Source of the DNA: Sinohyriopsis cumingii
Taxonomy: Eukaryota; Mollusca; Bivalvia; Unionida; Unionidae
Assembly: GCA_028554795.2 (NCBI GenBank)
Contig: CM068839.1
Coordinates: 45,725,440-45,789,439, forward strand
Length of the DNA: 64,000 bases
Reading direction: 5' to 3'
Positions 7,090-64,000 of the stretch are shown piece by piece. A model generated the notes under the pieces. It saw only the letters and a program-made list of their open reading frames with translations. It was not told the origin of the DNA and ran no database searches. How positions within the stretch are numbered: position 1 is the stretch's first letter; each line of letters begins with the position of its first letter. The position numbers and the translations under genes are program-made.

Positions 7090-10000
7090 CCATATTAAAT
7101 TCATTATCTGCTCCGTTTGGGTCTGTCCATACTAAATTCCTTATCTGCTCTATTAGGGTCTGTCCATGTTAAAGTCCTTTACTGCCATCTCAGGGTATAT
7201 CCACATTAAATTTCTTATATGCCATCTCACAGTCTGTCCAAATTAAATTTCTTATATGCCATCTCAGGGTCTGTCCACATTAAATTACTTACCTGCCATC
7301 ACTGGGTCCATCCATATTATATTCCTTATCATGTGTATCAGGGTATCCATACTAAATTCCTTATCTGGTGTATCAGGGTATCCATATTAAATTCCTTATC
7401 TGGTGTATTAGGGTATCCATATTAAATTCCTTATCTGGTGTATCAGGGTATCCATATTAAATTACATATCTGGTGTATTAGGGTATCCATATTAAATTCC
7501 TTATCTGGTGTATCAGGGTATCCATATTAAATTCCTTATCTGGTGTATTAGGGTATCCATATTAAATTCCTTTTCTGGTGTATTAGGGTATCCATATTAA
7601 ATTCCTTATCTGGTGTATCAGGGTATCCATATTAAATTACATATCTGGTGTATTAGGGTATCCATATTAAATTCCTTATCTGGTGTATCAGGGTATCCAT
7701 ATTAAATTCCTTATTTGGTGTATTAGGGTATCCATATTAAATTCCTTTTCTGGTGTATTAGGGTATCCATATTAAATTCCTTATCTTGTGTATTAGGGTA
7801 TCCATATTAAATTCCTTATCTTGTGTATTAGGGTATCCATATAACATTCCTTATCTGGTGTATCAGGGTATCCATATTAAATTCCTTATCTGGTGTATTA
7901 TGGCATCCATATCAAACTCCTTATCTGGTGTATCAGGGAATCCATATTAAATTCCATATCTGGTGTATCAGGGTATCCATATTAAATTCCTTTTCTGGTG
8001 TGTTAGGGTATCCATATTACATTCCTTATCTGGTGTATTAGGGTATCCATATTACATTCCTTATCTGGTGTATCAGGGTATCCATATTAAATTCCTTATC
8101 TGGTGTATTAGGGTATCTATATTAAATTCCTTATCTGGTGTATCAGGGGATCCATATTAAATTCCTTATCTGGTGTATTAGGGTATCGAAATTAAATTCC
8201 TTATCTGGTGTATCAGGGTATCCATATTAAATTCCTTATCTGGTGTATCAGGGTATTCGTATTAAATTCCTTATCTGGTGTATTAGGGTATCCATATTAA
8301 ATTCCTTCTCTGGTGTATTAGGGTATCCATATTACATTCCTTATCTGGTGTATCAGGGTATCCATATTAAATTCCTTATCTGGTGTATTAGGATATCCAT
8401 ATTAAACTCCTTACATTCCTTATCTGGTGTATCAGGGTATCCATATTAAATTCCTTATCTGGTGTATTAGTGAATATACATTCAATTCCTTATCTGGTGT
8501 ATTAGGGTATCAATATTAAATTCCTTATCTGGTGTATTACGGTATCCATATTAAATTCCTTATCTGGTGTATCAGGGTATCCATATTAAATTCCTTATCT
8601 GGTGTATTAGGGTATCGAAATTAAATTCCTTATCTGGTGTATCAGGGTATCCATATTAAATTCCTTATCTGGTGTATCAGGGTATCTGTATTAAATTCCT
8701 TCTCTGGTGTATTAGGGTATCCATATTAAATTCCTTTTCTGGTGTATTAGGGTATCCATATTACATTCCTTATCTGGTGTATTAGGGTATCCATATTAAA
8801 TTCCTTATCTTGTGTATTAGGGTATCCATATTAAATTCCTTATCTGGTGTATTAGGGAATATATATTAAATTCCTTATCTGGTGTATTAGGGTATTGATA
8901 TTAAGTTCCTTATCTGGTGCATTAGGGCATTGATATTAAATTCCTTATCTGGTGTATCAGGGTATCCATATTAAATTCCTTATCTGGTGTATCATGGTAT
9001 CCATATTAAATTCCTTATCTGGTGTATCAGGGAATCCATATTAAATTCCTTATCTGGTGTATTAGGGTATCCATATTAAATTCTTTATCTGGTGTATCCG
9101 GGTATCCATATTAAATTCCTTATCTGGTGTATCAGGGTATCCATATTAAATTCCTTATTTGGTGTATTAGGGTATCCATATTAAATTCCTTATCTGGTGT
9201 ATCACGGTATCCATATCAAATTCCTTTTCTTGTGTATCAGGGTATCCATATTAAACTCCTTATATTCCTTATTAGGTGTATCAGGGCATCCATATTAAAT
9301 TACTTATCTGCTGCATTAGGGTATTGATATTAAATTCCTTATCTGGTGTATCAGGTTATCCATATTAAATTCCTTATCTGGTGTATCAGGGTATCCATAT
9401 TAAATTCCTTATCTGGTGTATTAGGGTATCCATATTAAATTCCTTATCTTGTGTATCAGGGTATCGATATTAAGTTCCTTATCTGGTGTATCAGGGTATC
9501 CATATTAAATTCCTTATCTTGTGTATTAGGGTATCCATATTAAATTCCTTATCTGGTGTATTAGGGTATCCATATTAAATTCCATTTCTGGTGTATTAGG
9601 GTATCCATATTAAATTCCTTATCTGGTGTATTAGGGTATCCATAGTAAATTCCTTATCTGGTGTATTAGGGTTTCCATATTAAATTCTTTATCTGATGTA
9701 TCTAGGTATCCACATTAAATTCCTTATCTGGTGTATCAGGGTATCCATATTAAATTCCTTACCTGGTGTATTAGGGCATTGATATTAAATTCCTTATCTG
9801 GTGTATTAGGGTATCGATATTAAATTCCTTATCTGATGTATTAGGGTATCCATATTAAATTCCTTATCTGGTGTATTAGGGTATCCATATTAAATTCCTT
9901 ATCTGGTGTGTTAGGGTATCCATATTAAATTTCTTATCTGATGTATCAGGGTATCCATATTAAATTCCTTATCTGGTGTATCACGGTATCCATATTAAAT

Positions 10001-13000
10001 TCCTTATCTGGTGTATTAGGGTATCAATATTAAATTCCTTATCTGATGTATTAGGGTATCCATATTAAATTCCTTATCTGGTGTATTAGGGTATCCATAT
10101 TAAATTCCTTATCTGGTGTATTAGGATATTCATATTAAATTCCTGATCTTGTGTATCAGGGTATCGATATTAAGTTCCTTATCTGGTGTATCAGGATATC
10201 CATATTAAATTCCTTAAATTGTGTATTAGGGTATCGATATTAAATTCCTTATCTGGTGTATTAGGGTATCCATATTAAATTCCTTATCTGGTTTATTAGA
10301 GTATCCATATTAAATTCCTTATCTGGTGTATTAGGGTATCCATATTAAATTCCTTATCTGGTATATTAGGGTATTGATATTATATTCCTTATCTGGTGTA
10401 TTAGGGTATCCATATTAAATTCCTTATCTGGCGTATCAGGGAATCATTATTAAATTCCTTATCTGGTGTATCAGGGTATCCATATTAAATTCGTTATCTG
10501 GTGTATTAGGGTATCGATATTAAGTTCCTTATTTGGTGTATTAGGGTATCCATATTAAAATCCTTATCTGGTGTGTTAGTGTATCCATATTAAATTTCTT
10601 ATCTGATGTATCAGGGTATCCATATTAAATTCCTTATCTGGTGTATCTGGGTATCTATATTAAATTCCTTATCTGGTATATCAGGGTATCCATATTAAAT
10701 TTCTTATCTGGTGTATCTGGGTATCCATATTAAATTCCTTATCTGGTGTATCAGGGTATCCATATTAAATTCCTCATCTTGTGTATTAGAGTATCGTTCT
10801 TAAATTCCTTATTTGGTGTATTAGGGTATCAATATTAAATTCCTTATCTGGTGTATTAGGGTATTCATATTAAATTCCTTATCTGGTGTATCAGGGTATC
10901 CATATTAAACTCCTTACATTCCTTATCTGGTGTATCAGGTATCCATATTAAATTCCTTATCTGGTGTATTAGGGAATATATATTCAATTCCTTATCTGGT
11001 GTAATAGGGTATTGATATTAAATTCCTTATCTGGTGTATTAGGGTATCCATATTAAATTCCTTATCTTGTGTATTAGGGTATCGTTATTAAATTCCTTAT
11101 TTGGTGTATTAGGGTATCAATATTAAATTCATTATCTGGTGTATTAGGGTATCCATATTAAATTCCTTATCTGGTGTATCAGGGTATCCATATTAAACTC
11201 CTTACACTCCTTATCTGGTGTACCAGGGTATCCATATTAAATTCCTTATCTGGTGTATTAGGGAATATATATTCAATTCCTTATCTGGTGTAATAGGGTA
11301 TTGATATTAAATTCCTTATCTGGTGTATTAGGGTATCCATATTAAATTCCTTATCTTGTGTATTAGGGTATCGTTATTAAATTCCTTATTTGGTGTATTA
11401 GGGTATCAATATTAAATTCCTTATCTGGTGTATTAGGGTATCCATATTAAATTCCTTATCTGGTGTATCAGGGTATCCATATTAAACTCCTTACACTCCT
11501 TATCTGGTGTACCAGGGTATCCATATTAAATTCCTTATCTGGTGTATTAGGGAATATATATTCAATTCCTTATCTGGTGTATTAGGGTATCCATATTAAA
11601 TTCCTTATCTGGTGTATCAGGGTATCCATATTAAACTCCTTACATTCCTTATCTGGTGTATCAGGGTATCCATATTAAATTCCTTATCTGGTGTATTAGG
11701 GAATATATATTCAATTCCTTATCTGGTGTATTAGGGTATCAATATTAAATTCCTTATCTGGTGTATTAGGGTATCCATATCAAACTCCTTATCTGGTGTA
11801 TCAGGATATCCATATTAAACTCCTTATATTTCTTATCTGATGTATCAGGGTATCCATATTAAATTCCTTATCTGGTGTATTAGGGAATATATATTAAATT
11901 CCTTATCTGGTGTATTAGGGTATCCATATTAAATTCCTTATCTGGTATATTAGGGTATCGATATTATATTCCTTATCTGGTGTATTAGGGTATCGATATT
12001 AAATTCCTTATCTGGCGTATCAGGGAATCATTATTAAATTCCTTATCTGGTGTATCAGGGTATCCATATTAAATTCGTTATCTGGTGTATTAGGGTATCG
12101 ATATTAAGTTCCTTATCTGGTGTATTAGGGTATCCATATTAAATTCCTTATCTGGTGTATCAGGATATCCATATTAAACTCCTTATATTCCTTATCTGGT
12201 GTATCACGGTATCCATATCAAATTCCTTATCTGGTGTATTAGGGAATATATATTAAATTCCTTATCTGGTGTATTAGGGTATTGATATTAAATTCTTTAT
12301 CTGGTGTATCAGGGTATGCATATTAAATTCCTTATCTGGTGTATTAGGGTATCCATATTAAATTCCTTCTCTGGTGTATTAGAGCATCCATATTAAATTC
12401 CTTATCTGGTGTATTAGGGTATCCATATTAAATTCCTTATCTGGTATATTAGGGTATCGATATTAAATTCCTTATCTGGTGTATTAGGGTATCCATATTA
12501 AATTCCTTATCTGACGTATCAGGGTATAATTATTAAATTCCTTATCTGTTGTATCAGGGTATCCATATTAAATTCGTTATCTGGTGTATTAGGGTATCGA
12601 TATTAAGTTCCTTATCTGGTGTATTAGGGGATCGATATTAGATTCCTTATCTGGTGTGTTAGGGTATCCATATTAAATTTCTTATCTGATGTATCAGGGT
12701 ATCCATATTAAGTTCCTTACCTGGTGTATTAGGGCATTGATATTAAATTCCTTATCTGGTGTATTAGGGTATCGATATTAAATTCCTTATCTGATGTATT
12801 AGGGTATCCATATTACATTCCTTATCTGGTGTACTACGGTATCGATATTAAATTCCTTATCTGGTGTATTAGGGTATCGATATTAAATTCCTTATCTGGT
12901 GTATCAGGGTATCCATATTAAATTCCTTAACTGGTGTATTAGGGCATTGATATTAAATTCCTTATCTGGTGTATTAGGGTATCGATATTAAATTCCTTAT

Positions 13001-16000
13001 CTGATGTATTAGGGTATTCATATTAAATTCCTTATCTGGTTTATTAGGTTATCCATATTAAATTCCTTATCTGCTGTATTAGGGTATCCATATTAAATTC
13101 CTTATCTGGTGTATTAGGGTATCGATATTAAATTCCTTATCTGGTGTATTAGGGTATCCATATTAAATTCCTTATCTGGTGTATTAGGGTATCCATATTA
13201 AATTCCTTATCTTGTGTAACAGGGTATCGATATTAAGTTCCTTATCTGGTGTATCAGGGTATCCATATTAAATTCCTTATCTTGTGTATTAGGGTATCCA
13301 TATTAAATTCCTTATCTGGTGTATTAGGGTATCCATAGTAAATTTCTTATCTGGTGTATTAGGGTTTCCATATTAAATTCTTTATCTGGTGTATCCGGGT
13401 ATCCATATTAAATTCCTTATCTGGTGTATCCGGGTATCCATATTAAATTCCTTATCTGGTGTATCAGGGAATCCATATTAAATTCCTTACCTGGTGTATT
13501 AGGGCATTGATATTAAATTCCTTATCTGGTGTATTAGGGTATCGATATTAAATTCCTTATCTGATGTATTAGGGTATCCATATTACATTCCTTATCTGGT
13601 GTATTAGGGTATCCATATTAAATTCCTTATCTGGTGTGTTAGGGTATCCATATTAAATTTCTTATCTGATGTATCAGGGTATCCATATTAAATTCCTTAT
13701 CTGATGTATTAGGGTATCCATATTAAATTCCTTATCTGGTGTATTAGGGTATCCATATTAAATTCCTTATCTGGTGTATTAGGGTATCCATATTAAATTC
13801 CTTATCTGGTGTATTAGGGTATCCATATTAAATTCCTTACCTGGTGTATTAGGGTATTCATATTAAATTCCTTATCTTGTGCATCAGGGTATCGATATTA
13901 AGTTCCTTATCTGGTGTATCAGGGTATCCATATTAAATTCCTTAAATTGTGTATTAGGGTATCCATATTAAAGTCCTTATCTGCTGTATCAGGGTATCCA
14001 TATTAAATTCCTTATCTGGTGTATTAGGGTATAGATATTAAATTCCTTATCTGGTGTATTAGGGTATCCATATTAAATTCCTTATCTTGTGTATCAGGGT
14101 ATCGATATTAAGTTCCTTATCTGGTGTATCAGGGTATCCATATTAAATTCCTTATCTTGTGTATTAGGGTATCCATATTAAATTCCTTATCTGGTGTATT
14201 AGGGTATCCATATTAAATTCCTTATCTGGTGTATTAGGGTATCCATAGTAAATTCCTTATCTGGTGTATTAGGGTTTCGATATTAAATTCTTTATCTGGT
14301 GTATCCGGGTATCCATATTAAATTCCTTATCTGGTGTATCAGGGTATCCATATTAAATTCCTTATCTTGTGTATCAGGGTATCCATATTAAATTCCTTAT
14401 GTGGTGTATTAGGGTATCCATAGCAAATTCCTTATCTGGTGTATTAGGGTTTCCATATTAAATTCTTTATCTGGTGTATCCGGGTATCCATATTAAATTC
14501 CTTATCTGGTGTATCAGGGTATCCATATTAAATTCCTTATTTGGTGTATTAGGGTATCCACATGAAATTCCTTATCTGGTGTATCAGGGTATCCATATCA
14601 AATTCCTTTTCTTTTGTATCAGGGTATCCATATTAAACTCCTTATATTCCTTATTAGGTGTATCAGGGTATCCATATTAAATTCCTTATCTGGTGCATTA
14701 GGGTATTGATATTAAATTCCTTATCTGGTGCATCAGGGTATCCATATTAAATTCCTTATCTAGTGTATCAGGGTATCCATATTAAATTCCTTATCAGGTG
14801 TATTAGGGTATCCATATGAAATTCCTTATCTGGTTTATTAGAGTATCCATATTAAATTCCTTATCTGGTGTATTAGGGTATCCATATTAAATTCCTTATC
14901 TGGTATATTAGGGTATCAATATTATATTCCTTATCTGGTGTATTAACGTATCCATATTAAATTCCTTATCTGGCGTATCAGGGTATCATTATTAAATTCC
15001 TTATCTGGTGTATCAGGGTATCCATATTAAATTCATTATCTGGTGTCTTAGGGTATCGATGTTAAGTTCCTTATTTGGTGTATTAGGGTATCCATATTAA
15101 ATTCCTTATCTGGTGTGTTAGTGTATCCATATTAAATTTCTTATCTGATGTATCAGGGTATCCATATTAAATTCCTTATCTGGTGTATCTGGGTATCTAT
15201 ATTAAATTCCTTATCTGGTATATCAGGGTATCCATATTAAATTCCTTATCTGGCGTATCAGGGTATCATTATTAAATTCCTTATCTGGTGTATCAGGGTA
15301 TCCATATTAAATTCATTATCTGGTGTCTTAGGGTATCGATATTAAGTTCCTTATTTGGTGTATTAGTGTATCCATATTAAATTTCTTATCTGATGTATCA
15401 GGGTATCCATATTAAATTCCTTATCTGGTGTATCAGGGTATCCATATTAAATTCATTATCTGGTGTATTAGGGTATCCATATTAAGTTCCTTATTTGGTG
15501 TATTAGTGTATCCATATTAAATTTCTTATCTGATGTGTTAGGGTATCCATATTAAATTTCTTATCTGATGTATCAGGGTATCCATATTAAATTCCTTATC
15601 TGGTGTGTTAGTGTATCCATATTAAATTTCTTATCTGATGTATCAGGGTATCCATATTAAATTCCTTATCTGGTGTATCTGGGTATCTATATTAAATTCC
15701 TTATCTGGTGTATCAGGGTATCCATATTAAATTCCTTATCTTGTGTATTAGGGTATCATTATTAAATTCCTTATTTGTTGTATTAGGGTATCAATATTAA
15801 ATTCTTTTTCTGGTGTATTAGGGTATCCATATTAAATTCCTGATCTGGTGTATCAGGGTATCCATATTAAACTCCTTATCTGGTGTATTAGGGAATATAT
15901 ATTCAATTCCTTATCTGGTGTATTAGGGTATTGATATTAATTTCCTTATCTGGTGTATTAGGGTATCCATATTAAACTCCTTATATTCCTTATCTGGTGT

Positions 16001-18765
16001 ATCAGGGTACCCATATTAAATTCCTTATCTGGTGTATTAGGGAATATATATTAAATTCCTTATCTGGTGTATTAGGGTATCCATATTAAATTCCTTATCT
16101 GGTGTATTAGGGAATATATATTAAATTCCTTATCTGGTGTATTAGGGTATCCATATTAAATTCCTTATCTGGTGCATTAGAGTACTGATATTAAATTCCT
16201 TATCTGGTGTATCAGGGTATCCATATTAAATTCCTTATCTGGTGTATTAGGGTATCCATATTAAATTCCTTCTCTGGTGTATTAGAGTATCCATATTAAA
16301 TTCCTTATCTGGTGTATTAGGGTATCCATATTAAATTCCTTATCTGGTGTATTAGGGTATCGATATTAAATTCCTTATCTGGTGTATTAGGGTATCCATA
16401 TTAAATTCCTTATCTGGCAAATCAGGGTATCATTATTAAATTCCTTATCTGGTGTATCAGGGTATCCATATTAAATTCGTTATCTGGTGTACTAGGGTAT
16501 CGATATTAAGTTCCTTATCTGGTGTATTAGGGTATCGATATTAAATTCCTTATCTGGTGTGTTAGGGTATCCATATTAAATTTCTTATCTGATGTATCAC
16601 GGTATCCATATTAAATTCCTTACCTGGTGTATTAGGGCATTGATATTAAATTCCTTATCTGGTGTATTAGGGTATCGATATTAAATTCCTTATCTGATGT
16701 ATTAGGGTATCCATATTAAATTCCTTATCTGGTGTATTAGGGTATCCATATTAAATTCCTTATCTTGTGTATCAGGGTATCGATATTAAGTTCCTTATCT
16801 GGTGTATCAGGGTATCCATATTAAATTCCTTATCTGGTGTATTAGGGTATCCATAGTAAATTCCTTATCTGGTGTATTAGGGTATCCATATTAAATTCCT
16901 TATCTTGTGTATTAGGGTATCGTTATTAAATTCCTTATTTGTTGTATTAGGGTATCAATATTAAATTCTTTATCTGGTGTATTAGGGTATCCATATTAAG
17001 TTCCTTATCTGGTGTATCAGGGTATCCATATTAAACTCCTTATCTGGTGTATTAGGGAATATATATTCAATTCCTTATCTGGTGTATTAGGGTATTGATA
17101 TTAAATTCCTTATCTGGTGTATTAGGGTATCCATATTAAATTCCTTATCTTGTGTATTAGGGTATCGTTATTAAATTCCTTATTTGTTGTATTAGGGTAT
17201 CAATATTAAATTCTTTATCTGGTGTATTAGGGTATCCATATTAAGTTCCTTATCTGGTGTATCAGGGTATCCATATTAAACTCCTTATCTGGTGTATTAG
17301 GGAATATATATTCAATTCCTTATCTGGTGTATTAGGGTATTGATATTAAATTCCTTATCTGGTGTATTAGGGTATTGATATTAAATTCCTTATCTGGTGT
17401 ATCAGGATATCCATATTAAACTCCTTATATTCCTTATCTGGTGTATCAGGGTACCCATATTAAATTCCTTATCTGATGTATTAGGGAATATATATTAAAT
17501 TCCTTATCTGGTGTATTAGGGTATCCATATTAAATTCCTTATCTGGTATATTAGGGTATCGATATTATATTCCTTATCTGGTGTATTAGGGTATCCATAT
17601 TAAATTCCTTATCTGGCGTATCAGGGTATCATTATTAAATTCCTTATCTGGTGTATCAGGGTATCCATATTAAATTCATTATCTGGTGTATTAGGGTATC
17701 GATATTAAGTTCCTTATCTGGTGTATCAGGGTATCCATATTAAATTCCTTATCTGGTGTATTAGGGAATATATATTAAATTCCTTATCTGGTGTATTAGG
17801 GTATCCATATTAAATTCCTTATCTGGTGCATTAGAGTACTGATATTAAATTCCTTATCTGGTGTATCAGGGTATCCATATTAAATTCCTTATCTGGTATA
17901 TTAGGGTATCGATATTAAATTCCTTATCTGGTGTATTAGGGTATCCATATTAAATTCCTTATCTGGCGTATCAGGGTATCATTATTAAATTCCTTATCTG
18001 GTGTATCAGGGTATCCATATTAAATTCGTTATCTGGTGTATTAGGGTATTGATATTAAGTTCCTTATCTGGTGTATTAGGGTATCGATATTAAATTCCTT
18101 ATCTGGTGTGTTAGGGTATCCATATTAAATTTCTTATCTGATGTATCACAGTATCCATATTAAATTCCTTACCTGGTGTATTAGGGCATTGATATTAAAT
18201 TCCTTATCTGGTGTATTAGGGTATCGATATTAAATTCCTTATCTGATGTATTAGGGTATCCATATTAAATTCCTTATCTGGTGTATTAGGGTATCCATAT
18301 TAAATTCCTTATCTGGTGTATTAGGGTATCCATAGTAAATTCCTTATCTGGTGTATTAGGGTATCCATATTAAATTCCTTATCTGGTGTATTAGGGTATC
18401 CATATTAAATTCCTTATCTTGTGTATCAAGGTATCGATATTAAGTTCCTTATCTGGTGTATCAGGGTATCCATATTAAATTCCTTATCTTGTGTATTAGG
18501 GTATCCATATTAATTTCCTTATCTGGTGTATTAGGGTATCCATAGTAAATTCCTTATCTGGTGTATTAGGGTATCCATATTAAATTCCTTATCTGGTGTA
18601 TTAGGATATCCATATTAAATTCCTTATCTGGTGTATCAGGGTATCGATATTAAGTTCCTTTTCTGGTGTATCAGGGTATCCATATTAAATTCCTTATCTG
18701 GTGTATTAGGGTATCCATATTAAATTCCTTATCTGGTGTATTAGGGTCTATCCATAATAAATTCC
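7090..18765. repeat. 11.7-kb satellite array, 35-bp unit
   Basis: About 330 tandem copies of a 35-bp unit containing CCATATTAAATTCCTTATCT and GGTGTATTAGGGTAT. Main variant positions are ATTAGGG/ATCAGGG, ATCCATATT/ATCGATATT and TCTGG/TCTTG. Some units carry a 9-bp insertion. Variants recur in blocks (289-bp and 245-bp higher-order units, see findings). The left 200 bp and the last few units are degenerate, as expected at array edges. Small plus-strand frames with a 35-residue period (3 x 35 bp) are artefacts. Confidence 0.96.
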
Positions 18766-19735
18766 TTATTGTCTGTAGCACGGTCGATCCATATTTAATT
18801 TCTTTGAAACAAATGCTTACCATTTCTTTAAATCACAATACTAGCTTTAGTTCCATCTGATCTTCTTACCTATAACTAACAAAAATCAAGGACAACATGC
18901 AGTTTTGTTTGGTATGTATATTTTTGGGGGTGAGTATGGCAAACACCAAAGTATCAAAGCCATCAACTTTTTTATTTTAATTGGAATTAGAGCCAAGTAC
19001 AATGTTGAGTTTTAGTTTTTCATTTAGGTCCCACTTTTTTCAAAACATGGAAATATGACTATAAGGATAAATCCAAATGTTTGTCTAATCACAAGGCAAA
19101 CTTTTAAATGCTTAAGAGGCTTATTATCCCTTTCAATGTCTTTCATTTGTTTGATGCCATTTCTAGAAAATGCTTAGAACAAATATTTACAGCTTGACCA
19201 TGCAGACATTTAGCATTAATATATAGGCAGTTTAAAACATCTGAAGTACTACTGTAAAGTCAGTCTGGTTCCCAGACCAACTTCACTGAATCTGACATGA
19301 AAACTTGATCCAGTTTAAACAAACACTGCAACCAATCTCTGGATCTGACCACAAGGATCCTATTTTTAATTCTGGCTATTATTGTGTAACTCCATAATTT
19401 AAATACCATGTCAGTATAAATTGTAAGAGCTGACAGGTCTGTAATTATATGTGCATGCTGGGATAAATTAGTGCCAGTGGTACAGCCTAAATTATTATAT
19501 ATTTTGCTTTCCGTACATACAGATGCAAACAAAAGATATTCAAAATGATCTAGCCATTCAGATTGTAATCATAGAAAGAAAATGAAATTATTAAGCAAAG
19601 ACCGAAAATTTTAAATTTTTTAATAGGAATAGAGAAAAGACAAGAAAAGAAAACCACCTATGGTATGACGAGATTACAAACCATGAATACTGTAAATTTG
19701 TTTTGATTCATAGGTTACCCATCTTTGTTCTTTTT
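18766..19735. other. Unique host sequence, no supported gene
   Basis: AT-rich, with no recognisable coding or repeat structure. The 90-codon minus-strand frame near 19.4 kb has no motif or splice support. Confidence 0.4.
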
Positions 19736-51029: not shown

Positions 51030-51865
51030 GGCAGTTCTGTATTTGCTGGAATGACTTGGAATTCCTCTTGCACAAATGCACGGTCAGGAGGTTTTGAGGT
51101 TTTTACCACCAAGTGATAATGGCCCCAATCAGTAACAGGTAGGTTGTCTTGTAGCATCATTCTATTCTAAAATAGTAAACAAGTCTACCGACCATAATGG
51201 GTCAGTGACATGATATTGTGGCCCACTTTCCAACTCTCCAGGTGCATACAAATGTGAAACAAGCTTGTCTCCAATTTATTTTCTGAGTAACCATCACAGT
51301 CTTTTGCCGAATTGCACTGGCTAGTTTTAATCCGCTTGGGTGTGTGATTTCATTGTTCAAGGCTGCTATGACCAATGGAAGTAGGGTTACCCATTCCTAA
51401 GACCATTTTGGTTTTAGCAGCAATTCTTGTGCATACTGATGACTGAATAACCATGCCACAAGAGTGCAGTTAAATTCTTCTATAAAAGCTTGGTCATGAT
51501 GTACTTTGACATGCCTGACACGTACATGCACACAGTGTTTGATTAACAATAGAGCCACAGATCCTAGAAATTCTTTACCAGATCCACTTGCAGCAGTCGT
51601 TGCCATGTGAGTGGGCTGCCTGCATAAATGCACTTCAGTGCAGCATCGGTGACACTAGCAGAATCTTTGGATGTCAGCAACTCTGCTTCCTTGTATTGGC
51701 TGGCCACATTGACAATGGTGAGTGCATATCTGTAAGTGCAAAACTTGCCATGACAACTGATAAGTGAATGAGGTCTCTTTACAGCTGAACAGTCATCAGC
51801 AGCCTTCGAAAAAAATATGACTACTGCGCAGATGCCAATCATATGGCACGTGCATATCACAATAA
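51030..51865 (-). pseudogene. Polinton integrase relic
   Basis: Minus-strand pieces in at least two phases line up with the intact integrase of the neighbouring element. YALTIVNVASQYKEAE (intact copy: YALTVVDVASRYKEAE), WQRLLQVD with the second catalytic Asp region, GKEF, then HHDQAFIEEFNCTL where the intact gene has the catalytic Glu in DQAIVERFNRTL. Downstream are YAPGELESG and DPLWSVD, then EEFQVIPANTELP, the usual integrase end. Frameshifts and stops throughout; the N-terminus is not recognisable. Sequence is nearer to canonical Polinton integrases than to the intact neighbour, so it belongs to the relic polymerase's element rather than being a copy of the intact one. Confidence 0.85.
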
Positions 51866-51982
51866 TTAGTCATACATATACCGGCACCAAATCATCGATA
51901 CCAAAACCTTCTGGTTTTGTCATCAAGACTTTTATATATATGTTGTACTCGCTGTATTACTTTTTACTGGTTCATCTGGAGT

Positions 51983-52285: not shown

Positions 52286-52957
52286 TTATGTTGCAAATAG
52301 TGTATCAAGTCCAATACGGTATCTTGTTCTGGGATCGTGTAAATTTATTGTCACAAATCCGTGAGGTTTTCTTTGAGCATGACTGAAGAAATTTTTAAAT
52401 TTATTTAAATCCATATCGCCACCACACCAGGTTTGATGAATATTTCTCAGTGTATGTGTATCAACTCCATTGAATATCGCAAGAAGATTACAATTATCCC
52501 TGATTACTTTAGGAATTTGTGTATAACGCTGAGTAACATAAATCACATCAGTGTTTTTGTGACGTCCCCGGGAAAATATTCTTGCGGGATTTTTTTGCTT
52601 GTCCAACATAACATCATCATACACTACTAGGTTGTTAATTGATTCATCAAGATCCTCGACGCTGGGGGCTTCTTCGATATCAGTGATAAATTCAACAACA
52701 TCCTCACCGTCTTTACTCAGCGCGCTTGCACTCTCATTAAAATCTTTTATAACGTTATAGCATCGTTGATCATCTACAGATGGAGCTATCAAATACAGTT
52801 TATCCCATTTCATCCACTTCATTATCAAGTTCAGCAACAGCTGTGTTTTACCTGAACCGGATGGCCCAATTATAATCGCGCGGATAGAGTTTGGTAGCAC
52901 TGAATTATGCTTAACTGGCTCTTTCTTTTTTGTCGCAGAAAAATCTGTAATTTCCAT
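52286..52957 (-). CDS. FtsK/HerA-type genome-packaging ATPase (A32-like)
   Basis: Drives DNA into the capsid in Polintons and relatives. 223 residues from the ATG at 52957, within the family's usual 200-280. Walker A GPSGSGKT at residues 31-38, Walker B NLVVYDD at 109-115, then the family-typical FSRGRHKNTDVIYVTQ with the sensor Gln at about 143, and IRDNCN. The frame stays open upstream to 53203, but that part overlaps the divergent gene and reads as low-complexity hydrophobic sequence, so I use the later ATG, just before which the Polinton-like N-terminus begins. Divergent from the zinc-ribbon gene with only 22 bp between starts. No defects seen. Confidence 0.92.
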   Translation of the reverse strand: MEITDFSATKKKEPVKHNSVLPNSIRAIIIGPSGSGKTQLLLNLIMKWMKWDKLYLIAPSVDDQRCYNVIKDFNESASALSKDGEDVVEFITDIEEAPSVEDLDESINNLVVYDDVMLDKQKNPARIFSRGRHKNTDVIYVTQRYTQIPKVIRDNCNLLAIFNGVDTHTLRNIHQTWCGGDMDLNKFKNFFSHAQRKPHGFVTINLHDPRTRYRIGLDTLFAT

Positions 52958-52979
52958 TTGTATATAAAGAATAATAATT
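52958..52979. promoter_or_regulatory. 22-bp divergent start region
   Basis: Only 22 bp separate the two ATGs; it includes TATATAAA (52961-52968). This TATA-like box lies too close to either ATG for a normal 25-30-bp offset, so leader sequences would have to be almost absent or the true promoters lie inside the opposing genes. Confidence 0.35.
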
Positions 52980-53485
52980 ATGGATCTATATTGTGTGAAG
53001 TGTAAGGCACGAACCCCTACGAATGATCTAACAACCATTACAACAAAAAATAACAGACAAGCACTTTCTGGTAAGTGTACGCGATGTGGCACAAAAAAAT
53101 TTAGATTTAAAAAAAAAAGCGAGAATTTAGCGGAGGTGACATTGCAGCCAAACTTGGAAAGCTCCCCGGAACTCCCTGGGCAAAGTATCCCGGAGAAAAA
53201 CATCTCCCAGGATACAATTACTGCGGTCCAGGGACCCGACTAGATATCAGACTTGATGAACAATCTAAACCAAAACCGGGAGAGTATCCGATAAACGCTA
53301 TCGACGCAGCGTGTCACATACATGATGTTGCTTATCGAAGTAAAGATCTACAAGACAGGCATATCGTGGATGTGAAATTAATTCATGCACTAAGCGCCAT
53401 AAAAAATAAATCATTTAAGGAGTCACTCGCTAATTGGTTAGTAAGATCAGCGATGAAATCTAAATTAGTATTAGGCGCTGGATAA
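52980..53485 (+). CDS. Zinc-ribbon plus phospholipase A2 virion protein, interrupted by a -1 offset
   Basis: First part (from 52980): a DUF5679-type zinc ribbon, YCVKCKARTPT ... KCTRCGTKKFRF, two CxxC pairs. Second part, in the -1 phase to the stop at 53483-53485: a parvovirus VP1-type phospholipase A2 domain with calcium loop YCGPGT (53219-53236) and catalytic HDVAY (53321-53335). In Polintons, adintoviruses and parvoviruses such a domain is thought to breach endosomal membranes during entry. The phases meet at an A10 run (53109-53118); the zinc-ribbon frame otherwise runs on to 53243. In other Polintons, as I recall, the two domains form one protein. Either a base is missing at the homopolymer (assembly or mutation) or the run is a slippage site. 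The integrase gene starts 10 bp after the stop. Confidence 0.8.
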
Positions 53486-53495
53486 TTAAATAAAA

Positions 53496-54485
53496 ATGCA
53501 AGCGATTTATTATTCCCCAATCGGATACTGGAGAGGTAACTCAGCAATTAATAAACTCGCCAACGCGGCATCAGTAACACGCGAGGTTGCCAAAAATTGG
53601 CTATCAAAACAAGCAATATGGCAAATCTACTTACCACCACCTCGACAAATCAACTTTGCACATTTTGATGTTAGTGTGCCCAATGAAGTTCATCAGGCTG
53701 ACATACTATTCCTGCCTCATGATACTGTCCGTAGAAAAATATACAAATACGCGCTAACAGTAGTTGATGTTGCCAGTAGATACAAAGAAGCAGAACCGTT
53801 AGCGACTAAAACAGCGTCCGAAGTCGCCTCTGCGTTTAAACGAATTTATCAACGAGGACCTCTAAACTGGCCACGATTATTACAAGTTGATCCTGGCAAG
53901 GAATTTCAGGGCGCGGTGTCATCACTGACAAAGCAGCATAACGTTACCATACGACGAGGACATACTGAAATTCATCGGGATCAGGCAATTGTTGAGCGAT
54001 TTAATAGAACACTCGCTGAGAGATTATTCGCATACCAGTACGCGAGGGAATTCATTTACGATACGAGATCTCGTGAATGGGTTGCAAGACTGCCAAACGT
54101 GATAGCCGCACTGAATAATGAAATTACCAGAACAACAAACATGAGACCTGTAAATGCAATCACAAAAAAATATCTACCCCGCGTCAGTGAACGCGGACAA
54201 CAGCAACAAAATGTTTCAACGCAGCCAGGGACGCTAGCGTCCCCACTGCTGGGTAATGTCACCGTTAGGTATTTATACGAACCAGGCGAACTAGAAGGAG
54301 GAAAAAAAAGAGCAACCGATCCCACATGGAGTGTTACTACACATAAGATATCCAGCATAACCAGATCAACTGGGAGAAACGCAATCTACAGATTAGATTC
54401 GACTGCTCCTCAACGCGGATTTAAACGCGAGCAACTTCAGGTGATTCCCGAGGATACACAATTACCACCCCGATCACTAAAGTGA
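53496..54485 (+). CDS. Retroviral-type (rve) integrase
   Basis: 329 residues. Inserts linear element DNA into host chromosomes. Catalytic D,D-35-E core: Asp69 (HQADILF), Asp132 (QVDPGKEF) and Glu167 (DQAIVERFNRTL), with 34 residues between the last two. Preceded by about 60 N-terminal residues without the usual HHCC zinc motif and followed by a basic C-terminal domain with YEPGELEGG, DPTWSV and FKREQLQVIP, typical of Polinton integrases, which often end in a chromodomain-like fold. Starts 10 bp after the phospholipase frame and ends tail-to-tail with the polymerase, 24 bp away. Intact. A broken paralogue of another lineage lies at 51.0-51.9 kb. Confidence 0.93.
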   Translation: MQAIYYSPIGYWRGNSAINKLANAASVTREVAKNWLSKQAIWQIYLPPPRQINFAHFDVSVPNEVHQADILFLPHDTVRRKIYKYALTVVDVASRYKEAEPLATKTASEVASAFKRIYQRGPLNWPRLLQVDPGKEFQGAVSSLTKQHNVTIRRGHTEIHRDQAIVERFNRTLAERLFAYQYAREFIYDTRSREWVARLPNVIAALNNEITRTTNMRPVNAITKKYLPRVSERGQQQQNVSTQPGTLASPLLGNVTVRYLYEPGELEGGKKRATDPTWSVTTHKISSITRSTGRNAIYRLDSTAPQRGFKREQLQVIPEDTQLPPRSLK

Positions 54486-54509: not shown

Positions 54510-57500
54510 TTAAATAACTGCAGCAACACCTCTGCGTCGGTTACACTCAAGACAGGTCAACATCACATTTTCACGTGTATGACCGCGACTGCTATCTATT
54601 CTATCTACGGTGAATTGCCTTGGGTCGTTTTTCGAATACTGCCACAGCAATAAACAATTACAACTCGCACAGTGATTATTCTGCTGTTGTTGTAATTGTA
54701 TTACAAATTCAACATCCAAACTTTGTTTGGGATCAAACTCTCTACCATTTTTTTTGTCGCTCTGTTTGTAACCGGCTAATTTCTTTCTTATTGTGTCATC
54801 AGCGATTGAGCTGTCGTTGACAACATCATCTAATACAATTCTTCGTAACTGACCTATCCTTCTTACTCTTGACACGGCTAAATAAACTAAATTTGACCAC
54901 TCGATGCGATCATCAACAATCCAAACTGTTGTATCTGAAATAGTTAGTCCCTGCGAACTGTGGATGGTCATAGCGTATCCTAGCGTCCACGGGGATTTGC
55001 TCATTTTCAGTGCCTGTTCAACAGCATCAACATCAACTGTGACAATATCATTTAATACTAAATTCTGTTTCTCCGGACCCGACGCAGTCAGGCGCCCTGG
55101 AATATCAACATCAATATTCTGCAATCGCGTATCAGCTGGTCTATAACACAACGGCACTGGCAACATGGGAAATTTCTTCTGATGTAACTGAAATAACCGC
55201 TGCTGAAGTGTGTCCCTGACTATCTTTCTACTTGCCACAATTAAATCACCTGGTTTCCACGTTTCCCAAAAGTCGCTCAGCGAAGTCTCTGGAATTATTT
55301 CACGCATTATCTCACACTGGACTTTATTGGTTTGTAGCCTGATCAGTGCCTTAAACTCTTTCAGCGTTTCATCGAGTGCTCTAACATCGTTAGTTATTTC
55401 CTCATAATAATCTACAAAAGTTTTCAGCCACTCGTGTGGAGATTCACCTGTAAATGGGGGTGGTTGACCATGATCGCCGCACATCACCACTGCGGTATTT
55501 TTCTTTAGCAGCCAATCCAGAAACTGTTTTAATGTATCCAACGGCACAGTGTCTATCTCATCCCAGATGATTTTCTCGGGAATATATTTCGTTCCCATTC
55601 GTTCAGGTGTCCACGTGCCGCCGCTGTATTTGAAAAAACTGTGATACGTGCACGCGTTAACATCCCGTTGTCTCATCTCCCTGGCAAGTCTGTGTGTGGG
55701 TGTTAGCACAATCATGTCAGAGTTTCTAAATAATTCAATCGCTCGAGTTGTTTTACCAGAACCACCAGGACCGTTCAGATAAACTGTTTTGTGTCTTGTA
55801 ACAGGATCGTGCACCGGCGGCAACAACGAAGTTGCCCCCGACGAAACCATCGAAGATATTTCTGCGCTGCGATACTCATCCTCGATTTCAACATCAGCCG
55901 ATTTACAATATCCGTGTAACATTTCATTCTTTATTCTCCACGAGCCCCACGATGGATCATCCGATATAACATTATCCAACAGCGCTGAGTGTTTTTTATC
56001 AATATAAAATGAATCCGTTGCAACTCTCACTGCGGCAACAGGGAATCTATTGATCATCGACAACAAATTTATGGATACATAAGCCAGCATCGAAGATCTC
56101 AAATGTATGTACTGAGATGATTCTCCGTCAATATAACTAAAAACAGTCCCTAGTTTTTCCCCGTTTGACAGAAACACATCTTTGCGGTTACAGAACATGT
56201 TGTTCGTGGCTGCATCAGCGACAATAAGATCCAATTCAGTCTTGTCCATGATTAATCGACTGTGATGTTGTTTATGATCATACGCTCCACCTTGAGTGAA
56301 TTTCCCTATTATTCTTCGTCCTAGATCTTTTGCTGTGCTTTCATCATTTCTGAGTTTGCTTTTAAGTACTTCAGGAGCTTTCTTGATGATAGCGTCGATA
56401 GAAGTTTCTGGATATTCTCGTGACCAATCTTCGATGACTTCTTCTAACGTAACCGGCGTTGGAGTTGGCAACCAAACTTCGGTTTGACGACAATAACATA
56501 TAATCGCTTCGCTGACCGTCAGCGACAACAGTATTCGACTGTCAAGCATGTATCGCAATAACACTATCGGTGCCCATCGCTTCTCAACGAAATGTCTGCC
56601 AAACCAAACATAACACACAGGATGTAAATCCTTAGCGAATTTAAACGACGACACACAAGCAAATCCGGTCAAGTCAAAATCGGGTAAAACACCGTTGACA
56701 GCTACTCTTGTCATGGTATTGCCAGCGTGGCCAAACCGTTTAAAATATTCGCTGCATTCTCCACGCCCAAGGAAACTTCCTGGATAACACGCCGTCATGT
56801 CCACGGATATCATACCGCGGTGATCATACTGAGTATTCCACAAACCGCCGTGTCCGTATTCGACACAGCTCTGCTGGATATCAGCAAGAAAACTTTTCGG
56901 AGTTGGTCTCCATGAATTTCGTTCCCGGGCTACATGCGCGACAACACCCGGGACAGTAAAACAGTGTGTCAGTAACGTATCAGTGTTGCCAGCATGATAT
57001 TTTTCTGCGAGTTTTTTCATTTCCTGCTGTAACGCCATTGTTCTGTATATTTCCCCGTTGGGTCTCACAAACTGATCATATTCTCCATCTTCGCTACTTC
57101 TGAATAACCACACAGACACTGGATCGGTTTTACTTATCTGATAAATAAAATCAAACATGCTCCCAGAATTGCTTTGCAATTCCGGATAATACTTCACAAC
57201 ACGGTCTTGCGGAAATATCCTAACCGAGTCAGTCCAGGCGTGACTGTTATGATCGATAATAGTTATTGGTGTTCCACGGGAATTGTATTTACACTCATAC
57301 AATACCTCACCGGTTAACGATGAAACCGTTATAGGAAATTTTAGTAATCGCTCTAGCTCAGCAACATCATTTATTGACGCTCCTTTATCCGCTACTCGTG
57401 TCGCCCACGCTGTTATTTTAGTTTGTCTTAGCGGTGTTAGGCCGTTTCCTCGCATTGCATTTTTAAAATGTTCCATTACTCGCTCAGCTACACAATTCAA

Positions 57501-58055
57501 CACCGACACCTTCATCGGTTTGAGTTTATCAACGCGTGGTTTCTTCATCGGATAAATTCCATAAACAACTGCGGTCACAGGATACGCTCTGGCATAATAT
57601 GGTATATCAATCCCAACAAGTACTCCCGGTTTTGAGTCTTTACTTAACAGAACGGTTTTTCCACGAACGCCTCTGGCATCAAGAACAGGGTCTAGTTTGT
57701 CTCTGATAATCCACGTTCCCTCGCCGACTCCAACAATAAATTTTATCTGTACGAAATATCTTCTATCGTCGAGATACCCAATTATGTTACGCGCGATTGT
57801 ATCGTTCATGGTAGCATCAATGATACGGTCACGAGAAATGCTTTGCATTTCCCGAGAAACGCTCGCGTTTCCGAGGATAATTTTATACGAAGACCACGTG
57901 TGTGCGGCACCATCACGACGAAACTCTTCTTTGGCATTCTTGATAACACCAATTACCTCTGCTAACTCTCTTCGTCGTGGATCAGCGGTTAACCGGTCAA
58001 GATCGAATCTAGAACCTGATATGGGTTTTATTCTGGATAGTCTTTCAAAACCCAT
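54510..58055 (-). CDS. DNA polymerase B - SF1 helicase - HNH nuclease fusion
   Basis: 1181 residues in one uninterrupted frame. Residues 1-410: unassigned, no recognisable 3'-5' exonuclease motifs; contains IIDHNSHAW (266-274). Residues 410-690: family B polymerase palm, motif A VDMTACYPGSF (Asp419), a motif-B-like RRIIGKFTQGG (about 580-590) and motif C VATDSFYI (678-685), where Asp681 keeps the metal-binding position although the first Asp of the usual DTD is Ala. Residues 758-1070: superfamily 1 helicase, Walker A GPGGSGKT (762-769), Walker B IIWDEID, motif III GDHGQPPP, then TIHSSQG and YLAVSRVRR, closest to Pif1/RecD-like enzymes. Residues 1127-1181: HNH domain with CASC, FTVDRIDSSRGH, NVMLTCLECN. 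It would be the element's replicase. The fusion is unlike the usual Polinton polymerase, relics of which lie at 42.8-49.9 kb. Start: first ATG, 42 bp from a divergent gene. Confidence 0.88.
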   Translation of the reverse strand: MGFERLSRIKPISGSRFDLDRLTADPRRRELAEVIGVIKNAKEEFRRDGAAHTWSSYKIILGNASVSREMQSISRDRIIDATMNDTIARNIIGYLDDRRYFVQIKFIVGVGEGTWIIRDKLDPVLDARGVRGKTVLLSKDSKPGVLVGIDIPYYARAYPVTAVVYGIYPMKKPRVDKLKPMKVSVLNCVAERVMEHFKNAMRGNGLTPLRQTKITAWATRVADKGASINDVAELERLLKFPITVSSLTGEVLYECKYNSRGTPITIIDHNSHAWTDSVRIFPQDRVVKYYPELQSNSGSMFDFIYQISKTDPVSVWLFRSSEDGEYDQFVRPNGEIYRTMALQQEMKKLAEKYHAGNTDTLLTHCFTVPGVVAHVARERNSWRPTPKSFLADIQQSCVEYGHGGLWNTQYDHRGMISVDMTACYPGSFLGRGECSEYFKRFGHAGNTMTRVAVNGVLPDFDLTGFACVSSFKFAKDLHPVCYVWFGRHFVEKRWAPIVLLRYMLDSRILLSLTVSEAIICYCRQTEVWLPTPTPVTLEEVIEDWSREYPETSIDAIIKKAPEVLKSKLRNDESTAKDLGRRIIGKFTQGGAYDHKQHHSRLIMDKTELDLIVADAATNNMFCNRKDVFLSNGEKLGTVFSYIDGESSQYIHLRSSMLAYVSINLLSMINRFPVAAVRVATDSFYIDKKHSALLDNVISDDPSWGSWRIKNEMLHGYCKSADVEIEDEYRSAEISSMVSSGATSLLPPVHDPVTRHKTVYLNGPGGSGKTTRAIELFRNSDMIVLTPTHRLAREMRQRDVNACTYHSFFKYSGGTWTPERMGTKYIPEKIIWDEIDTVPLDTLKQFLDWLLKKNTAVVMCGDHGQPPPFTGESPHEWLKTFVDYYEEITNDVRALDETLKEFKALIRLQTNKVQCEIMREIIPETSLSDFWETWKPGDLIVASRKIVRDTLQQRLFQLHQKKFPMLPVPLCYRPADTRLQNIDVDIPGRLTASGPEKQNLVLNDIVTVDVDAVEQALKMSKSPWTLGYAMTIHSSQGLTISDTTVWIVDDRIEWSNLVYLAVSRVRRIGQLRRIVLDDVVNDSSIADDTIRKKLAGYKQSDKKNGREFDPKQSLDVEFVIQLQQQQNNHCASCNCLLLWQYSKNDPRQFTVDRIDSSRGHTRENVMLTCLECNRRRGVAAVI

Positions 58056-58388: not shown

Positions 58389-58415
58389 ATTAGACAATGA
58401 TTTGCTTATAGTATA

Positions 58416-58951
58416 ATGAATCAAGAATTCGTCCGACATCCAACTATTCCAAATTATGAGGCAAACCGAGATGGCATAGTGAGAAACTACAGGCTGAGGA
58501 AACAAGTTGGTACAGTTGATAATGCTGGTTATTTAAGAATACTGTTAGGAAAGGGAGGTATTTATGTCATCGTTTCGTCTATGAGGTTTTTAACGGAGAG
58601 ATCCCTAAAGGCCTTGTCATTGATCATATTAACGGGAACAGACTTGATAACAGTATTGAAAACCTTCAAGCGATCACTCAGAGCAAGAATACCATACGAG
58701 GAAGAGTTAAATGTAAAACAGCTATAAGAAGAGCAGTGAAATCTGTGAATGTTGAGACTCGTGAAGAAATAATATTTCAATCAATGAGCGCAGCCGGTAG
58801 GTATTTCGGTATTTGTCCACCTTCTGTACAGCATGTCGCAGATGGGATCTACAAAACAGCATTTTCAAAGAAGCTCAAACAGAAGATTTCATTCTGTTAT
58901 ATAACTCTTATCGTTGACACAAACGACGATAACTCCTCCGAGAGTGTGTAA
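58416..58951 (+). CDS. HNH homing-type endonuclease (NUMOD4-HNH), interrupted by a -1 offset
   Basis: Starts with a NUMOD4-like piece (IPNYEANRDGIVRNYRL). From about 58550 the homologous frame is the -1 phase: CHRFVYEVFNGEIPKGLVID, then HINGNRLDNSIENLQAIT, the HNH core with its Asp-His and Asn residues, and a C-terminal helix-turn-helix (SMSAAGRYFGICPPSVQHVA, IENR1-like). Together about 178 residues, normal for phage and giant-virus HNH homing enzymes. The break lies in the purine-rich stretch near 58547-58558. Starts 27 bp after the zinc protein, same strand. Could be a selfish passenger rather than an element function, and is distinct from the HNH tail of the polymerase fusion. Confidence 0.8.
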
Positions 58952-63017: not shown

Positions 63018-64000
63018 TTACGCGGTAACCAATTGAGGCGTTGCAGCGACGAATTCCAAACAAAACCAGTAAGATGTTGCTGTTAAACTATCGTCCTCGG
63101 CTTCAAGCATAAATGTTTCCTCGGTTCCGCTGTTTAGTATTACAGTGCAAACCCCGGAATACTTATCGGTGGAATGTCTCCAAGGATATGTTGTGAAGAT
63201 TTCAAATTTAGCGGCTGAAAACACAGACAACCTGTAAACACCGGTGGCTGTTGCTGTATATTTGATAGTGTTATTTTGTCGTGACCATGTTGCGAATCCC
63301 GATGATACCGTGAATACGATGTTGGTGATATGCCCCGGAGTAACTCCAGTGGGAACTTTAATCAAACTGGTTTTGTTAACGATATCAGGAATACCCGATA
63401 CGATATCCTGCTGTGTTTGTTTGATCGTGTTAATGTCGGTCTTTACATCAGCGAGTTTTACATCGACGACTGGAGGAGTCCCAAAGAACTTATCCACGAC
63501 CTCATCAGTTTTTACGAAGTTTCTTCGAAATCTTGTAAACGCGCCCACGTGAACATCATGCTCTGCACGCAGCGTATTTAGTTTACCGTTGACGATGTCC
63601 ACGTATTGTTTGTTTGACGCATCCTGGTCGGATTCGGGATTCGCTAACGCGGTTATTTTGTTGCCGCTCATGCTGAGTTCGCCTGTCATCGTGTCACCGG
63701 CTTTTTTCACACATTTATCAACACCTTTATCAATACTGTCTTTGATGCTTGCGATTGATATATTCGAGTCCTTGATCCGGCCGCCATCACTAAATGCAAC
63801 GAAGTTATCCTTGGTAGCTCCAAGAACTCTGCGAATTATATCATTCCACTTAATGTTGCTCGTTCTTAGTTTTCCTTGCCTGTCTTGGAAAATAGCAACT
63901 TCATCTGGGTCAACTCCAGCTATATTCAAAAGATTATCGACTTCATCTTTGGTCGCATATTTTGAGAGATCAGCATCTGTGCTTGGTTTACCTCCTCGTG
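63018..64000 (-). CDS. Fibre-like protein with phage tail-fibre motif (5' end outside window)
   Basis: The frame is open to the window edge, so the start is missing; an in-frame TTG at 63929 is not a credible start. Contains the tail-fibre repeat GDTMTGELSMSGNKITALA followed by DASNKQYVD (about 63597-63701), as in many phage and some eukaryotic-virus fibres, then a predicted coiled coil (63400-63600). The beta-rich C-terminal head of about 120 residues has TGVYRLSVFSA, reminiscent of C1q/TNF-like folds. By position and architecture probably the receptor-binding spike. First gene of the leftward structural block within the window. Specific receptor unknown. Confidence 0.7.
   Translation of the reverse strand, partial: RGGKPSTDADLSKYATKDEVDNLLNIAGVDPDEVAIFQDRQGKLRTSNIKWNDIIRRVLGATKDNFVAFSDGGRIKDSNISIASIKDSIDKGVDKCVKKAGDTMTGELSMSGNKITALANPESDQDASNKQYVDIVNGKLNTLRAEHDVHVGAFTRFRRNFVKTDEVVDKFFGTPPVVDVKLADVKTDINTIKQTQQDIVSGIPDIVNKTSLIKVPTGVTPGHITNIVFTVSSGFATWSRQNNTIKYTATATGVYRLSVFSAAKFEIFTTYPWRHSTDKYSGVCTVILNSGTEETFMLEAEDDSLTATSYWFCLEFVAATPQLVTA

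What the first reader, a model, noticed from the sequence alone, without database searches (positions are those of the whole stretch)
54510..58055. Polymerase B, SF1 helicase and HNH nuclease in one Polinton protein
An uninterrupted 1181-codon frame carries a divergent family B palm (Asp419 and Asp681 kept, first Asp of the DTD motif changed to Ala), a complete SF1 helicase motif set and an HNH domain. Typical Polinton polymerases are stand-alone with an exonuclease and a protein-priming insertion; here I find no exonuclease motifs in the first 410 residues. This suggests a different replication mode, with built-in unwinding and perhaps nicking or resolution by HNH. I do not know this fusion as a standard Polinton feature.
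Basis: partly seen in the sequence, partly recalled or inferred. Interest (0 to 1): 0.78.

Follow-up and report, generated by a model that had tools for sequence, protein, structure and literature searches.

The report
Fused polymerase-helicase of a mobile element
This is one long protein predicted to copy and unwind the DNA of a virus-like mobile element sitting in a host genome; the same kind of fused enzyme is already described from polinton-like viruses, so it is mainly a new, apparently intact relative, with named kin in molluscs and root-symbiotic fungi.

Summary
A stop-free 1181-codon frame lies at 54510-58055, on the MINUS strand. It carries PolB motif A (Asp419), motif C as ATD (Asp681 kept, Ala679 in place of the first Asp), an SF1B helicase and a C-terminal HNH/endonuclease VII-like domain. 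The order [TP-like]-vOTU-PALM-SF1 helicase-HNH is the published architecture of Tlr1-like helicases (pPolB-S1H fusions; PMC11071308), which also lack the exonuclease and the first Asp of DTD and may end in GIY-YIG or HNH. So it is not a new replicase kind.

What is added: 91 retrieved relatives, 24 of them named (6 sea slug, 1 freshwater mussel, 16 arbuscular mycorrhizal fungi, 1 bacterial bin); catalytic positions rarely substituted; a palm about as conserved as the helicase; an HNH block in 49 of the 51 sequences that reach that far. Neighbours are an rve integrase, an A32-type ATPase and a PLA2 domain. Most likely mechanism (inferred): protein-primed strand-displacement replication with the helicase on the displaced strand and the protease freeing the primer. 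The HNH role is open.

The parts
54510..58055 (-). pPolB-SF1 helicase-HNH fusion protein, 1181 aa, intact frame
   Evidence: 91 relatives
57546..58055 (-). residues 1-170: alpha/beta domain in the place of a terminal protein (TP-like, not proven)
   Evidence: AlphaFold2 secondary structure; position before the vOTU; 4 of the 6 BFVD matches of residues 1-410 with E <= 0.001 are named DNA polymerases
57216..57542 (-). residues 172-280: OTU cysteine-protease fold, Cys188, His269/His272
56826..57212 (-). residues 282-410: region between vOTU and palm; no exonuclease motifs seen, exonuclease remnant not excluded
   Evidence: reading; phi29 polymerase alignment starts at residue 282
55881..56825 (-). 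residues 411-725: family B palm, motifs A (D419), B (K585), C (A679-T-D681)
54828..55814 (-). residues 748-1076: SF1B (Pif1/RecD2/Dda-like) helicase
54525..54803 (-). residues 1085-1177: HNH / endonuclease VII-like domain with four conserved Cys
   Evidence: phrog_1035 E 2.4e-09
53496..54485 (+). rve (retroviral-type) integrase
   Evidence: PF00665 E 1.8e-08; 3547 relatives, 120 listed
53111..53485 (+). phospholipase A2-like domain (PF08398), stop-to-stop frame
   Evidence: PF08398 E 2.1e-13
52286..53203 (-). A32-type packaging ATPase
   Evidence: PF04665 E 8.9e-14
63018..63998 (-). tail-fibre-like protein, probably of the same element (frame runs off the window end)
   Evidence: PF03906 E 8.8e-06; tail-fibre PHROGs

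Best explanation
The protein is the replicase of an integrated polinton-type dsDNA element: a pPolB-S1H (Tlr1-like) fusion ordered TP-like domain, vOTU protease, family B palm, SF1B helicase, HNH nuclease. Proposed working: a hydroxyl residue of the N-terminal domain primes synthesis at the element's ends (inferred); the vOTU cuts the primer domain off the rest (inferred from fold, conserved Cys/His and the published proposal); the palm extends by two-metal catalysis through Asp419 and Asp681 without the first Asp of DTD (inferred); the helicase, of the SF1B group that moves 5' to 3' (recalled), tracks on the displaced strand ahead of the polymerase (inferred). The HNH domain nicks or resolves DNA, or is a homing nuclease that stayed (open). 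Shown here: the domains, their order, their conservation in a family, and the neighbouring rve integrase, ATPase and PLA2 domain.
Confidence: 0.8

Rival explanations
1. The palm is catalytically dead and the protein acts as a helicase-nuclease; a host or helper polymerase copies the element.
For: Ala for the first Asp of DTD in 61 of 64 rows and an unusual motif B; PMC11071308 says its authors earlier judged such palms inactive.
Against: Asp419, Asp681 and Lys585 are not substituted in any aligned row (the rest are gaps), and palm identity is close to the helicase's. The same paper lists active polymerases lacking this Asp.
Confidence: 0.12
2. The HNH domain is a selfish homing endonuclease fused to the replicase and plays no part in replication.
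For: PMC11071308 reads the C-terminal GIY-YIG and HNH of Tlr1-like helicases as homing nucleases. A separate HNH_3 homing-type frame lies next door at 58523-58951. The usual HNH His is an Arg (R1152 in 48 of 64 rows, 14 gaps, 2 others; role recalled). At least one Gigaspora relative that reaches past the helicase (P0060) has a RING-like stretch instead.
Against: A pattern for the HNH block is found in 49 of 92 sequences; of the rest 41 do not reach far enough or show no helicase motif V, and only 2 (P0047, P0060) reach 130 residues beyond motif V without it. The four Cys, D1151, H1159 and N1163 are substituted in at most 2 of 64 aligned rows each.
Confidence: 0.4
3. A canonical stand-alone Polinton pPolB joined to helicase and nuclease genes by chance or assembly error.
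For: None found.
Against: Relatives on many separate contigs share the same order end to end.
Confidence: 0.01

Closest known systems
Tlr1-like helicases = pPolB-S1H fusions of polinton-like viruses, the Tetrahymena Tlr1 element and transpovirons (PMC11071308: abstract, passages and section 10 seen)
   Same: Order [TP]-vOTU-PALM-SF1 helicase; first Asp of DTD missing; no exonuclease; C-terminal GIY-YIG or HNH in some; Tlr1 also has an rve integrase and packaging ATPase (PMC4028283 passages)
   Different: Named relatives found here are molluscs and Glomeromycotina; the HNH is in 49 of 51 sequences that reach it; a PLA2-domain frame is adjacent; sequence similarity to Tlr1 itself untested
Helicase SF1-pPolB of Oxyrrhis marina PLV (PMC12721341, passages seen)
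   Same: SF1 helicase and PolB in one polypeptide of a PLV
   Different: Helicase N-terminal and exonuclease kept; the paper holds it to be independent of Tlr-type fusions
Canonical Polinton and mavirus pPolB (as described in PMC11071308)
   Same: TP-vOTU-palm layout; [quoted passage not shown]
   Different: No fused SF1 helicase; mavirus has a separate S3H helicase

Membership tests
Tlr1-like helicase / pPolB-S1H | family B palm with motifs A, B, C | tested here: met
Tlr1-like helicase / pPolB-S1H | first Asp of DTD missing | tested here: met
   Ala in 61 of 64, Thr 1, Val 1, gap 1
Tlr1-like helicase / pPolB-S1H | SF1 helicase fused C-terminal to the palm | tested here: met
Tlr1-like helicase / pPolB-S1H | vOTU upstream of the palm with catalytic Cys and His | tested here: met
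Tlr1-like helicase / pPolB-S1H | TP-equivalent alpha/beta domain before the vOTU | tested here: inconclusive
   alpha/beta domain in the right place; not matched to a solved TP in the 50 rows listed
Tlr1-like helicase / pPolB-S1H | TPR1 and TPR2 subdomains | tested here: inconclusive
   alignment to phi29 spans 282-722, but the subdomains were not examined; no coordinates at hand
Tlr1-like helicase / pPolB-S1H | exonuclease domain absent | tested here: inconclusive
   no exonuclease motifs seen by eye; a fold remnant in 282-410 not excluded
Tlr1-like helicase / pPolB-S1H | groups with Tlr1/transpoviron proteins in a sequence tree | not tested
   no named member's sequence obtained
Polinton/PLV element | rve integrase and A32/FtsK-type packaging ATPase | tested here: met
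[quoted passage not shown]
   no capsid family among the frames scanned; the element runs off the window end
Polinton/PLV element | terminal inverted repeats | tested here: inconclusive
   two inverted pairs at 44-48 kb lie outside the element and none flanks it; the right end lies beyond the window
Oxyrrhis-type Helicase SF1-pPolB | helicase N-terminal to an exonuclease-bearing pPolB | tested here: not met
   helicase at 748-1076, C-terminal to the palm

The most novel reading that the evidence does not exclude
A Tlr1-type replicase lineage established in molluscs and AM fungi, in which the HNH domain is no longer a homing passenger but a fixed endonuclease VII-like part that processes replication or integration intermediates, so that one polypeptide carries priming, primer release, synthesis, unwinding and junction or end cutting.
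Probability: 0.3. Interest if true: 0.55.

Novelty: new member of a known kind. Interest (0 to 1): 0.32.

Why it matters
It extends a replicase architecture described from protist viruses and giant-virus plasmids to elements whose named relatives lie in molluscs and AM fungi. It gives an intact copy and a 92-sequence family on which activity of the ATD palm, the vOTU and the HNH could be tested. The conservation of the palm bears on the published question whether such palms are active.

Tried and rejected
Viral contig scans with the protein and with alignment A1 gave no relative (5 and 10 pattern matches, none confirmed). The one genome-contig scan gave 1 relative among 41 pattern matches: L001, apparently frame-broken, on a contig titled Diapherotrites archaeon, which I read as misbinned DNA. 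tblastn on phage records gave two weak matches to the helicase/HNH end. Terminal repeats: none flanking the element. A sequence profile search of solved structures found the helicase and no polymerase; a PacI match (E 0.67) and a Cas9 match (E 1.3) are not evidence. NCBIfam gave only weak RecD matches for this protein. Searches are second looks at Foldseek's own matches; a TP was not among the rows, which does not exclude one.

Canonical stand-alone Polinton pPolB was set aside because of the fused helicase; the Oxyrrhis type because of domain order.

Literature: 10 searches, and passages or sections of papers. Polintons/Mavericks as such are on record in molluscs and Rhizophagus (PMC12220804, PMC7805220, PMC8647823, PMC4409740). 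In what I saw, no pPolB-S1H fusion is reported from a mollusc or Glomeromycotina. PMC3671162 lists Hydra magnipapillata among the species of its Figure 7 (helicase and Tlr 6F trees); in which tree was not visible. The 2016 paper by Krupovic, Yutin and Koonin (PMC5499653) and the adintovirus paper (PMC8502044) are not held, so earlier mention there is not excluded.

Confidence figures were not changed.

Full report
What is there. The stretch 54510-58055 holds a stop-free frame of 1181 codons on the minus strand; on the plus strand it is full of stops. In 200 shuffles of the same letters no open frame exceeded 156 codons.

Family. Two searches gave 91 relatives (63, 28 new). 24 bear a name: Elysia crispata 6, Sinanodonta woodiana 1, Glomeromycotina 16, one Thiodiazotropha bin; 67 have none. 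Mean pairwise identity over 32 members is 0.595 for the palm, 0.607 for the helicase, 0.576 for the vOTU, 0.570 for the HNH and 0.507 for 282-410 (pairs overlapping at least 70%: 459, 494, 431, 465 and 487 of 496). A pattern for the HNH block is found in 49 of 92 sequences; 41 do not reach that far or show no helicase motif V; 2 reach it without the block, P0047 and P0060, the latter with a RING-like stretch. In a quick tree of 73 of the 92 sequences (19 under 640 aa dropped) the 14 fungal rows are one side of a branch, and so are the 4 mollusc rows, all Elysia, counted against named rows only. The window groups with P0002-P0005 (support 100). The program warns that long branches meet, the window's among them, so deeper order is not to be trusted. 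The window's host could not be named: the own-genome search did not complete.

Element. Next to the gene lie an rve integrase (53496-54485 +, PF00665 1.8e-08) and an A32 ATPase (52286-53203 -, PF04665 8.9e-14). There is also a phospholipase A2-like domain (53111-53485 +, PF08398 2.1e-13), an HNH_3 homing-type frame split from its neighbour frame (58401-58951 +, 8.8e-18 for the second piece) and a tail-fibre-like protein at the window edge. No capsid protein was recognised; the element leaves the window. Eight of 91 replicase rows share source and longest-contig length with one of the 120 listed (of 3547) integrase relatives; I take this as the two genes lying together elsewhere (inference).

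Comparison. PMC11071308 (abstract, passages, section 10) describes Tlr1-like helicases: TP-vOTU-PALM-S1H, no exonuclease, first Asp of DTD missing, C-terminal GIY-YIG or HNH in some, found in PLVs, Tlr1 and transpovirons, predicted to be active polymerases. PMC12721341 (passages) describes an N-terminal-helicase fusion in Oxyrrhis as separate. PMC12220804 (passages) reports N-terminal HNH-helicase fusions and an SF1 helicase with C-terminal GIY-YIG in cryptophyte PLVs. The best whole-length viral fold match, H6WBE3 (999 aa, 1104 columns, E 1.3e-27, TM 0.21/0.24), is unnamed in the tables; I recall this accession range as a transpoviron of Lentille virus, but no call confirmed it (one search found no paper naming it). 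Of the eight pPolB-S1H features listed, four were met, three are inconclusive (TP, TPR1/2, exonuclease remnant) and one was not tested (sequence tree); none was failed.

Mechanism. Protein-primed start, vOTU primer release, and strand-displacement synthesis helped by a 5'-to-3' helicase on the displaced strand are all inferred from domains and the cited work. The strongest own evidence bearing on activity is that the palm is about as conserved as the helicase, with both metal Asp and the motif B Lys never substituted where aligned. Whether the HNH works in replication or is a homing passenger is undecided; its presence in 49 of 51 sequences that reach it leans mildly towards a function.

Verdict. 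The additions are the named hosts of relatives, the persistent HNH and the family alignment.

Noticed in passing
58401-58951 +: An HNH_3 homing-type endonuclease (PF13392 8.8e-18 for 58523-58951) split over two overlapping frames beside the replicase gene, apparently broken.
   Followed up: partly
51564-51869 -: A degenerate fragment resembling the rve integrase (PF00665 only E 0.14) just outside the element, perhaps from an older copy.
   Followed up: partly
7310-18769: An 11.5 kb array of a 35-base unit (about 325 copies), with many other tandem arrays over the first 43 kb.
   Followed up: no
63018-63998 -: Tail-fibre-like protein with a phage T7-type N-terminus, perhaps an attachment protein.
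   Followed up: partly
L001 1-3152: A contig titled Candidatus Diapherotrites archaeon carries an apparently frame-broken copy of this replicase, so it is probably misbinned; entries named Thiodiazotropha hold relatives of the replicase and of the integrase too.
   Followed up: partly
52980-53243 +: An 87-codon frame beginning MDLYCVKCK with two CxxC pairs (zinc-ribbon-like) lies between the ATPase and PLA2 frames and overlaps both.
   Followed up: no
P0060 (Gigaspora margarita protein): A relative whose part beyond the helicase carries a RING-like stretch in place of the HNH; it may be a gene-model join.
   Followed up: partly
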